Positions 1-23,771 of a DNA stretch of 64,000 bases are shown here, in pieces. Source of the stretch: Solirubrobacterales bacterium (GTDB lineage Bacteria; Actinomycetota; Thermoleophilia; Solirubrobacterales; Solirubrobacteraceae); assembly GCA_019240115.1 (NCBI GenBank), contig JAFAYV010000031.1, forward strand, positions 1 to 64,000, written 5' to 3'. The notes beneath the pieces are model-generated. The model searched no databases. It had not been told where the DNA came from and saw nothing but the letters and a program-made list of their open reading frames with translations. Position 1 is the first letter of the stretch. Every line of letters begins with the position of its first letter. Both the position numbers and the translations under genes were made by a program.

Positions 1-210
1 GACATCACCTCCGGGGCGGTGCTGCTCGTGGCCTGGGCCGCCGCCGATCGCACGGCACTTGGCTGGACGCTGATCGCCGCAGCCCTCACGCCAACAGCGG
101 ACGCCACCATCGTGCTCACCAACGGCGGCAAGCTCTCAACCGCCCTAGGCATCCACGCGCTCACCGCCGGACTGCTCGTCGCGGCAGGTCTCGTCCTGGC
201 CCTCGGGTGA
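1..210 (+). CDS. Small membrane protein, 3' end only (DUF4267-like)
   Basis: The reading frame is open from the first base of the window and ends at a TGA at 208-210, so only the last 69 residues are seen. They form two or three hydrophobic helices (LLVAWAAADRTALGW, a central small-residue segment, and a C-terminal GLLVAAGLVLALG) with a GGKLSTALGIH loop. That layout resembles the C-terminal half of DUF4267-type four-helix membrane proteins of actinobacteria. The family assignment is from memory and weak. No function is known. The true start lies outside the window; the GTG at 19 is internal to the frame. Confidence 0.5.
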   Translation, partial: DITSGAVLLVAWAAADRTALGWTLIAAALTPTADATIVLTNGGKLSTALGIHALTAGLLVAAGLVLALG

Positions 211-1073
211 GCAACACGCCCGATGACTGAACCCCCGTTGCTCACCACCGGACACGTATGAGTGGCGCCAGGACGCTTTGGCCAATAACGCGCAGCCCTG
301 GTCCCACGGGGAAAGGAGAAGCCGCGCGGGCGTCAACCACCGCTCCCTACTCCGTCGCCGATTGGGCAGTCTCAGCGACGCTGTCGCTCCTCCCAAAATT
401 CGACGTGTGGCCCAAGCTTGAACGATGTGCGCGCCATGCCGAAAGGAGGGCTACGTATGTGGCGCCGGGCGTCCCCGCGAGACGCTCGTCGCCTGGTAGA
501 GACGGGAGCAATGCCCTCCGCGGCTCTGCTGGGAGTCCACGAGCACACGGTGCGCGGTCACCTTCTCTGTGCGCATCGACGTGCTTCGCCGTACCACTCC
601 GGAACGAGTACGCAGGTTGTGTCGGAGATCGACCCGTCAGGCACGGCGGATCGTATCGCGACGCCACCGCCGGGGAGTAATCCCTGACCGCCATGTGGTA
701 GCACTTTTGCGCCATGTTGCGCAGTGAGCGGGACGTTCGAGTATTCGGTGCGCGCCCGGCCTGAGTGAACGGCCAGTGGATGCTTCGGGCCCCGAGGGGA
801 ATCCAGCAGCGAAGCCCTGAAGAGAGACAGGCTTGCCGGCTACGACCGCGGCCCGATGAGAAGCAATCAGGGAGTTGAGCCGCTCATGTCACGGCCGCCG
901 GCCCAGTCCGCCGGTATTGGAGAACTCCAAGCCAGAGCGGACGTTCAAGTGGGGGCGCGGGCCGCGGCGGACGGTCGTCGAAGCTCGTGAGCCGCTCAGT
1001 CATGAGGGGGTCGCGCTCCCCGCCTGCCGCTGAGGCCGACATTCAGACGGGCGTTGGTTCACCGGGGCGGTCG
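211..1073. other. Gene-free stretch with possible HTH relic
   Basis: About 860 bases hold no convincing intact gene; the open frames here overlap on both strands and have no recognisable protein. Around 480-560 on the plus strand two frames read ETLVAW and then ALLGVHEHTVR, which together resemble the PucR/CdaR-type C-terminal helix-turn-helix broken by a frameshift. This is too short to call with confidence. The stretch fits the general decay of this part of the window. Confidence 0.3.
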
Positions 1074-21751: not shown

Positions 21752-22918
21752 TCAGTGCGGCAATGGCGCGCCGGCCAGCGCCGCTATGACACCGACCGCG
21801 CCGGCGCTCAGCAGCGTTTGGACGACGCCTCGCTTGAGTACAAGCAGGGCGAGCAGCGCGGCGGTGAGGATCCCGAACTGCCAAGCCTCTCGCAGGGCTT
21901 CGGCGAGAACGACTGCGGCGCCTGCGATCGCGCCGATCGCGGCCGGACCCGCGCCGCTGAGGAACGCCTTCGCTGCTGTGTTCGTTCGGATCTGCTCAAA
22001 CCGCGGGCCGCCGAGCAGGATGAACGAGAACGACGGCGCGAACGCGACCGCGGCGGCGATCACGCCGCCGGCGAGGCCGTGAGCGGCGTAGCCGACGGCG
22101 GCGACAGTCGCGACGACCGGACCGGGCGTAATCTGTCCCAGCGCGACGGCGTTCAGGAACTGGGCATTGGTCATCCAGTGGGAGGTGTGAACGGCGTCGC
22201 CGTGCATCAGCGGGATGATCACGAACCCGCCTCCGAACGACAGCGCCCCGACCTTGAACGCGGTCCAGCACAGTGCACCGATCCCGCCGACAGACACTGC
22301 GCCAGGGATCACGAACACCAGCGGTCCACCGGGCAAGCCGCGACGCTCGATCACGACCTCAAGCAGCCCGCAGCCCAGGAGTGCGAGCACGAGGTAGGGG
22401 CCGAGCAGCGCGGCCGCGCCGATCCCGACGACCAGGTAGGCGCCCCACCGGACCACTCGGGCACGATCTGACCGGACCCGCGCAAAGCTCGGCGCGAGCA
22501 GTCCGTGGGCGGCGTGCATCGCGACCGCAGCAACGGCCGCGCCCGCGCCAGCACCAGCGCCGCGGATCCACAGCGGCGGGGTGTGTGCAAGAAACACGAG
22601 CGACAGCGCGAGGATCAAGATGACCGCCGGGGCGATGAACCCGAGGCCACCGACGATCACGCCGGCTGGACCAGCGACGCGGTAGGCGCAGAACAACGCC
22701 AACTGCGTCGATGCCGGGCCTGGGAGCAGTCCGCAGGCCGCGTTGGCGTCCTGGAACTCGCGGGCATCCAGCCACCCCTTGCGATCAACAGCGAGCTTGC
22801 GCAACAGCGCGATGTGTGCCGGCGGGCCACCGAAACCGGTGACGCCGATCCGTGTCCACTCATTGGCGATCACCCTCAGCGGCACCCGCCCTGCCCCTTC
22901 GGCCGACGCGGCGCTCAC
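21752..22918 (-). CDS. chrA: Chromate efflux transporter, two-domain
   Basis: Chromate transporter of 388 residues containing both CHR halves. First half: VTGFGGPPAHIALLRKLAVD, DANAACGLLPGPASTQLALF, GGLGFIAPAVILILALSLVF. Second half: TAFKVGALSFGGGFVIIPLM, FLNAVALGQITPGPVVATVA, AVAFAPSFSFILLGGPRF. The repeated FGG...PGP motifs are diagnostic. The GTG at 22918 overlaps the stop of the upstream arsC-like fragment as GTGA. The likely role is CrO4(2-) export. A metal-resistance context (arsR, arsM, arsC-like) supports it. Confidence 0.9.
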   Translation of the reverse strand: MSAASAEGAGRVPLRVIANEWTRIGVTGFGGPPAHIALLRKLAVDRKGWLDAREFQDANAACGLLPGPASTQLALFCAYRVAGPAGVIVGGLGFIAPAVILILALSLVFLAHTPPLWIRGAGAGAGAAVAAVAMHAAHGLLAPSFARVRSDRARVVRWGAYLVVGIGAAALLGPYLVLALLGCGLLEVVIERRGLPGGPLVFVIPGAVSVGGIGALCWTAFKVGALSFGGGFVIIPLMHGDAVHTSHWMTNAQFLNAVALGQITPGPVVATVAAVGYAAHGLAGGVIAAAVAFAPSFSFILLGGPRFEQIRTNTAAKAFLSGAGPAAIGAIAGAAVVLAEALREAWQFGILTAALLALLVLKRGVVQTLLSAGAVGVIAALAGAPLPH

Positions 22919-23187
22919 GCCGCAGCCTCTTGCTCGGCGTCGATCCTCGCGAGGAAGAACCGGATGCGGACCTCCAGCTCGGCGAGGGTGTCCACGAACG
23001 CCGCGTAGGTCTCCTCGTCGGTAGCTCCTGTCCGGGAGGGGTCGGGCACGCTCCAGTGGATCACGGCAGGGTGCTCGGGAAATTCGGGGCACACCTCCCG
23101 CACCGCGTAACCGTGGTCCGAGCCAGCGGAAGAGGGCAGCGCGGGTAGATAGCCTCCAACGATTGCGGAAAGCTTGCCGCGCCACAC
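22915..23187 (-). pseudogene. Arsenate reductase/LMW-phosphatase-like, 5'-truncated
   Basis: The 90-codon frame carries DHGYAVREVCPEFPEHPAVI, HWSVPDPSRTG and TLAELEVRIRFFLARIDAEQ. This is the C-terminal half of the low-molecular-weight phosphatase/ArsC family (PEFPG...HWSxxDPA...R...LEERV). The N-terminal half with the catalytic CxxxxxR loop is absent; the first 25 residues are unrelated. The truncation point is just downstream of a tRNA-like attachment remnant at 23.25-23.34 kb, so an insertion or excision event probably removed the 5' half. Its stop overlaps chrA as GTGA, showing an original arsC-chrA operon. Confidence 0.65.
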
Positions 23188-23247
23188 TCGCCCCCCGATC
23201 GAGGGCGGTTATCGGCCCCGTGAGAGCGGTTCACCACGAACCCGGAA

Positions 23248-23337
23248 CCTGTAAATTTGCAGGCAGATCAGGCTAAGCTTCATCCTCAGAGTTCGGGTTC
23301 GAATCCCGGTAGCGGTACTCGCTTTATACCTGCAAAT
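23248..23337. mobile_element. tRNA-3'-end remnant with integrase-arm-like repeats (att)
   Basis: At 23293-23317 the sequence folds as a T-arm: stem TCGGG/CCCGG around loop TTCGAAT, followed by a seven-base acceptor strand TAGCGGT and discriminator A, but without CCA or the rest of a tRNA. CCTGTAAAT and its inverted form ATTTGCAGG lie at 23248-23263, and CCTGCAAAT again at 23329-23337, flanking it in AT-rich DNA. That arrangement (tRNA 3' end as core, arm sites either side) is typical of the att site left by an integrated element. No integrase is present within the window. Confidence 0.55.
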
Positions 23338-23355
23338 AAGCATTTTCAAGGGAGC

Positions 23356-23397
23356 GAAAGCTACCGTTGGGGGCAGGAAAGCTACCGTTGGGGGCAG
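23356..23397. repeat. Tandem 21-bp direct repeat
   Basis: A 21-bp unit starting GAAAGCTACCGTTGGGGGCA occurs twice head-to-tail without gap (23356-23376 and 23377-23397), 20 bases after the attachment-like remnant. It is not inside a convincing gene. It may be part of the integration junction. Confidence 0.8.
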
Positions 23398-23771
23398 GGC
23401 AGAGCGGGCCCGGGAAGCGTCATCGCCGCGCTGTTCGGACGTGTCGTCGCGAGCGCGGGAGCGGCGGCGCTCGCCGGACTGCTGCTCCTCGCAGCCCTCG
23501 GGCTGCGTCTCTACGCTCGGCACTGGCCTCGCTCGCTGCTCGCAGTCGAGTCGGCCGCTCGGAGGACGAGGCCGCGCCGGCTCAAATGCGCGTGTGACGA
23601 GCCATGCAGGCGTGGCCGGAGCGTCCTCGCGCTCGGCCAACTGCTCCGCCGTGTCAAAAGGTGCGTCCGGGGTACCTCTGAGGTGCGGCACTGCGAGATA
23701 GGAGGAGAGATGACGGCTTCCGACCCCCACCGTGTGGTAGCCGACTCCGCGGAGCGGGACGGGCGACGGGC

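What the first reader, a model, noticed from the sequence alone, without database searches (positions are those of the whole stretch)
22915..23400. Integration scar: tRNA T-arm, arm repeats, 21-bp tandem and truncated arsC
A tRNA 3' segment with complete T-arm but no body, inverted and direct CCTGYAAAT repeats either side, a 21-bp tandem duplication and an arsC-like gene that loses its 5' half at this point all fall within 500 bp. Together they mark a junction left by a tRNA-targeting element that has moved or decayed.
Basis: partly seen in the sequence, partly recalled or inferred. Interest (0 to 1): 0.55.

Follow-up and report, generated by a model that had tools for sequence, protein, structure and literature searches.

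The report
Fossil tRNA-Glu attachment-site relic
This 400-base patch is the decayed leftover of a spot where mobile DNA elements once plugged into a transfer-RNA gene in a little-studied actinobacterium; it is a clear fossil, but of a well-known kind.

Summary
Window 23294-23318 is a 25-nt copy of the 3' end of tRNA-Glu(CTC), whose intact gene is elsewhere in the genome (C19). The 145 bp ending at this core are 81% identical to the attR of a 20.8-kb tyrosine-integrase element of a genus mate (G001), whose tRNA-Glu, integrase and xis-like gene lie at the other end; its two contigs overlap exactly by 151 bp. So this is the relic of an attachment site of a tRNA-Glu element family. Two details change. 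The 21-bp tandem is not unrelated: its TTGGGGGCAG word sits at +69/+90 from the T-loop, close to where relatives carry paired 12-bp-spaced repeats (+65 to +70; 9 of 46 sites). CCTGYAAAT is enriched near such sites but is not this arm repeat. The truncated gene is an ArsR-ArsC fusion that kept only its last fifth. No integrase of this family remains in the genome. Left and right arms carry different words, so the relic may be the junction between two different elements of an array, later deleted and displaced. Known kind; low interest.

The parts
22915..23103 (-). 3' remnant (about 62 aa) of an arsR-arsC fusion gene, upstream of and co-oriented with the chromate transporter gene (21752-22918)
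   Evidence: tblastn to intact fusions in G012, G026, G161 and two named MAG loci; N-terminal part not found elsewhere in the genome, only one weak hit on C51
23104..23177 (.). unassigned stretch between the arsC break and the arm; no match found
   Evidence: homology to arsC stops at 23103, homology to the G001 attR starts at 23179
23178..23293 (+). left (P-type) arm of an att site; one degenerate arm-type repeat CGCGCCACA at 23178-23186 (-120 from the T-loop); near-palindrome CCTGTAAATTTGCAGG at 23248-23263
   Evidence: 81% identity over 23179-23323 to the attR of the G001 element; paired TGCGCCACA at -130/-119 in G001 and, with one mismatch, -117/-106 in G028
23294..23318 (+). att core: 3' end of tRNA-Glu(CTC), T-arm part and acceptor strand, no tRNA body
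   Evidence: 25/25 identical to G000:C19 tRNA-Glu
23319..23397 (+). right (P'-type) arm: CCTGCAAAT 23329-23337 and TTGGGGGCAG at 23367 and 23388 (+69, +90), the latter forming the 21-bp tandem 23356-23397
   Evidence: single copy at +69 on C19 and a 12-bp-spaced pair at +69/+81 in G002:C602
23398..23571 (+). truncated 5' part of a gene (A) that follows the T-arm on C19 and on G002:C602
   Evidence: 92% identity to G000:C19:23425-23602 and 90% to G002:C602; about 200 bp of the C19 version is missing between 23377 and 23398; no Pfam match

Best explanation
A fossil tyrosine-integrase attachment site, made of left arm, tRNA-Glu(CTC) 3'-end core and right arm, belonging to a family of integrative elements that target the 3' end of tRNA-Glu(CTC) in this genus. 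Such elements carry a copy of the tRNA 3' end; on integration the tRNA is rebuilt at one end and the displaced 3' fragment marks the other. Here only that far-end fragment and its flanks survive. The left side was deleted and fused to an unrelated arsRC-chrA operon. The right side was cut inside gene A, beside a transporter gene not found in genus mates. Shown: core identity, arm homology to a complete element, arm-repeat geometry, absence of a family integrase, both breakpoints. Inferred: the order of events; that the differing left and right arm words mean the site lay between two different elements; how it left the tRNA locus.
For: Core 25/25 identical to C19 tRNA-Glu. 145 bp at 81% to G001:C335, where C335 and C339 (intact tRNA-Glu, tyrosine integrase parts 69-76% identical to G024's, xis-like gene) overlap exactly by 151 bp, giving 20,820 bp from T-loop to T-loop. 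C335 and C68 share nothing else by blastn, so the common part is the att. 7 of 46 examined sites with this core are body-less, including G024, G027, G028, G002, G001, the window and an IMG/VR contig, so displaced T-arms at this tRNA are common. 9 of 46 sites have a 12-bp-spaced direct repeat at +65 to +70, against a 1.45% chance of any such repeat (spacing 9-14) in a random 118-bp stretch; TTGGGGGC in the window starts at +69. No own-genome integrase is closely related: all hits listed for the family's integrases (L084, L101, L107a, L077) are below 40% identity; the loci of all 19 PF00589 hits were covered.
Against: The left arm-type repeat is a single degenerate copy; a one-mismatch hit alone is weak (0.36 per kb). 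The right repeats are 21 bp apart rather than 12. The rule that one element has the same arm word on both sides holds in G001 and L197 but was not seen in G024 or G028, so the two-element reading is uncertain. Both sides of the relic border unrelated DNA, so no donor element can be drawn. Nothing here was tested in the laboratory.
Confidence: 0.85

Rival explanations
1. Ordinary attR: one element integrated at tRNA-Glu, with gene A being the normal chromosomal flank, later duplicated or moved to C68. (This is a variant of the best explanation and overlaps with it; the confidence is for this variant.)
For: C19 has the intact tRNA-Glu followed by A, and G002:C602 has a body-less core followed by A.
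Against: A is found in only 4 of 146 family genomes and, of the sites compared, follows the core only on C19, G002:C602 and in the window. Its start carries a repeat at the usual right-arm position, so A looks element-borne.
Confidence: 0.3
2. Assembly or binning effect: contig C68, or this part of it, belongs to another strain or species.
For: Draft genome of 99 contigs, 4.2% contamination. A' differs from C19 by 8% over 178 bp and 19% over 84 bp, a species-like distance. C68 starts in a stretch 98% identical to C19:21646-21900.
Against: No exact end overlap between C68 and the C19 end tested. The relic is truncated on both sides, which a strain variant of an occupied site would not be.
Confidence: 0.12
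3. Chance tRNA-like sequence or an unrelated tRNA pseudogene made by other means.
For: No integrase next to it.
Against: 25-nt identity, only 2 genome sites, and extended arm homology to a real attR.
Confidence: 0.01

Closest known systems
tRNA-targeting genomic islands of tyrosine integrases (Islander type)
   Same: Regenerated tRNA at one end and displaced 3' fragment at the other; same logic as in the Islander abstract (PMC4383910, start of abstract in a search listing).
   Different: Here only the displaced fragment with its arms survives; no integrase and no element body.
20.8-kb element of G001 (C339/C335)
   Same: Left arm 81% identical, same core.
   Different: G001 is complete with integrase; its arms carry paired TGCGCCACA on both sides, the window one degenerate copy and a different right arm.
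IMG/VR contig IMGVR_UViG_3300047160_027047 (L197)
   Same: Intact tRNA-Glu and body-less core 10.1 kb apart; the body-less core is followed by the right arm of a different element.
   Different: Arms intact, integrase present; no similarity to the relic beyond the core.
Actinomycete ICEs (AICEs)
   Different: No Rep or Tra genes were sought here; that paper reports no AICEs in Rubrobacteridae (passage).

Membership tests
att site of a tRNA-targeting tyrosine-integrase element | core identical to the 3' end of a host tRNA gene | tested here: met
   25/25 with tRNA-Glu(CTC) on C19
att site of a tRNA-targeting tyrosine-integrase element | arm sequence shared with a complete element | tested here: met
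   81% over 145 bp to the G001 attR
att site of a tRNA-targeting tyrosine-integrase element | paired arm-type repeats at the usual spacing | tested here: inconclusive
   left: one degenerate copy; right: two exact copies at +69/+90, spacing 21 instead of 12
functional integrated element | cognate integrase in the genome and a matching second att | tested here: not met
   no family integrase among 19 PF00589 hits; the only other core is the intact tRNA on C19
AICE | Int, Rep and Tra modules | not tested
   no element body is left to test

The most novel reading that the evidence does not exclude
tRNA-Glu(CTC) in this family is an array hot spot where elements with different arm words share one core and one arm geometry (11-bp-spaced pairs left, 12-bp-spaced pairs right). 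Hybrid junctions then form between unlike elements, which no single integrase can excise, so they persist as fossils that can carry cargo away from the tRNA. The window would be such a stranded hybrid junction.
Probability: 0.3. Interest if true: 0.4.

Novelty: new member of a known kind. Interest (0 to 1): 0.22.

Why it matters
It ties a stray T-arm to a definable element family in a poorly studied actinobacterial group (relatives include Conexibacter sp. S30A1) and shows how arm-repeat geometry can identify att relics without an integrase. It does not change any general view.

Tried and rejected
Rejected: CCTGYAAAT as the main arm sites. It is enriched near cores (4 of 42 right sides, 4 of 42 left sides, one of the left ones upstream of an intact tRNA) but its position varies, and on the right it can be part of a terminator-like hairpin, as in G024. 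Set aside: my first guess that A is simply the native flank; it stays as a rival. No matching DNA in phages or plasmids for 23100-23400; two patterns gave nothing in IMG/VR. No Rfam hit of note. The transporter gene right of the relic is absent from the 27 other genus genomes searched at E 1e-60, so it gave no empty-site comparison. The arsC N-terminal part was not found elsewhere in the genome. A first integrase model was built from wrong reading frames and rebuilt. tblastx of C335 against C68 gave only short low-identity pieces that I discounted. Papers: searches; I saw passages of PMC3218068 and only listings of the others; none of the listed titles or abstract starts describes this element family, but the library is partial.

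Full report
The window is G000:C68:1-64000 of a 4.03-Mb, 99-contig draft genome.

Observation. The 25 nt at 23294-23318 equal the 3' part of tRNA-Glu(CTC) on contig C19 (C19:23870-23942 minus). These are the only two places in the genome with up to 2 mismatches to the 22-nt core. The upstream part of the tRNA is missing in the window. The CCTGYAAAT words, the 21-bp tandem and the truncated arsC are all present.

What lies left. Window 23179-23323 is 81% identical to G001:C335:19309-19452, and nothing else on that contig matches C68 by blastn. In G001 the intact tRNA-Glu is on C339 and is followed by a tyrosine integrase (N and C parts 76% and 69% identical to those of G024) and a homologue of the small xis-like gene that precedes G024's integrase (that small gene itself has no Pfam or PHROGs match, so 'xis-like' is my label from its position). 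C339 and C335 end in an exact 151-bp overlap, so they most likely join into one element of 20,820 bp from T-loop to T-loop. The C335 copy is therefore very probably a real attR, and the window carries its homologue. Both G001 arms bear paired TGCGCCACA words: +66/+78 at the integrase end, where the integrase C-terminus reads TVAQTVAQ over them, and -130/-119 at the far end. G028 has the far-end pair at -117/-106 with one mismatch; the window has one degenerate copy at -120.

What lies right. The C19 tRNA-Glu and G002:C602 (body-less) are both followed by the same stretch A; the window has A with about 200 bp missing and cut at 23571. A is in 4 of 146 family genomes. In a census of 46 sites with this core (38 intact, 7 body-less, 1 at a contig edge), 9 carry an exact 9-mer direct repeat 12 bp apart at +65 to +70. 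They use five words: TGCGCCACA in four sites, TGGGACAGT in one, GATGGGCCA in two, GGGACCCTA in one, and TTTGGGGGC in G002:C602. A tenth site (L078) has a repeat 11 bp apart at +94. A repeat of that kind anywhere in a random 118-bp stretch occurs in 1.45%. TTGGGGGC starts at +69 in the window, C19 and G002; second copies start at +90 in the window and +81 in G002. So the 21-bp tandem is best read as a spread-out right-arm pair. It is not a perfect match to the pattern, because its spacing is 21.

Reading. Left and right arm words differ in the window and in G002:C602. In L197 the body-less core of one element is followed directly by the TGCGCCACA arm of another. Body-less cores in G024 and G027 also have integrase sequence within 1.4 kb. 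The window therefore fits an old junction between two elements. But same-word arms were seen in only two elements (G001, L197) and not in G024 or G028, so I hold this at about even odds. That it is an att relic I hold at 0.85 or more.

Decay. No integrase of this family remains among the genome's 19 PF00589 hits, and the window itself has none. To the left, an ArsR-ArsC fusion, whose relatives sit upstream of chrA in G012, G026 and G161, is cut at 23103 so that about 62 of about 294 residues remain; its front part was not found elsewhere. To the right, the next gene (MFS transporter) is absent from the 27 other genus genomes searched.

Verdict: real, explained, known kind.

Noticed in passing
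window 1-256 and G000:C19:21646-21900: The left end of contig C68 is 98% identical to a DUF4267 gene about 2 kb downstream of the C19 tRNA-Glu. On C19 the match ends at a stretch coding for a group II intron maturase domain.
   Followed up: partly
L149, L130, L162, L168, L148 upstream of chrA: ArsR-type HTH fused to a low-molecular-weight phosphatase (ArsC-like) domain, directly upstream of a chromate transporter gene in several Solirubrobacterales.
   Followed up: partly
L197 (IMGVR_UViG_3300047160_027047): IMG/VR contig with an intact tRNA-Glu and a second body-less core 10.1 kb apart, followed by the arm of another element: an array at the same tRNA, catalogued as viral.
   Followed up: partly
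L099 about 10.18-10.26 kb (G001:C335): By eye, minus-strand sequence resembling the 5' half of a tRNA-Ser about 200 bp past the attR core; ARAGORN calls no tRNA there.
   Followed up: no
G000:C68:89823-90137 (L105): C-terminal piece of a tyrosine recombinase, outside the window.
   Followed up: no
G000:C68:65758-65852 (L104): ARAGORN reports a tRNA-SeC on the minus strand just beyond the window; not checked.
   Followed up: no
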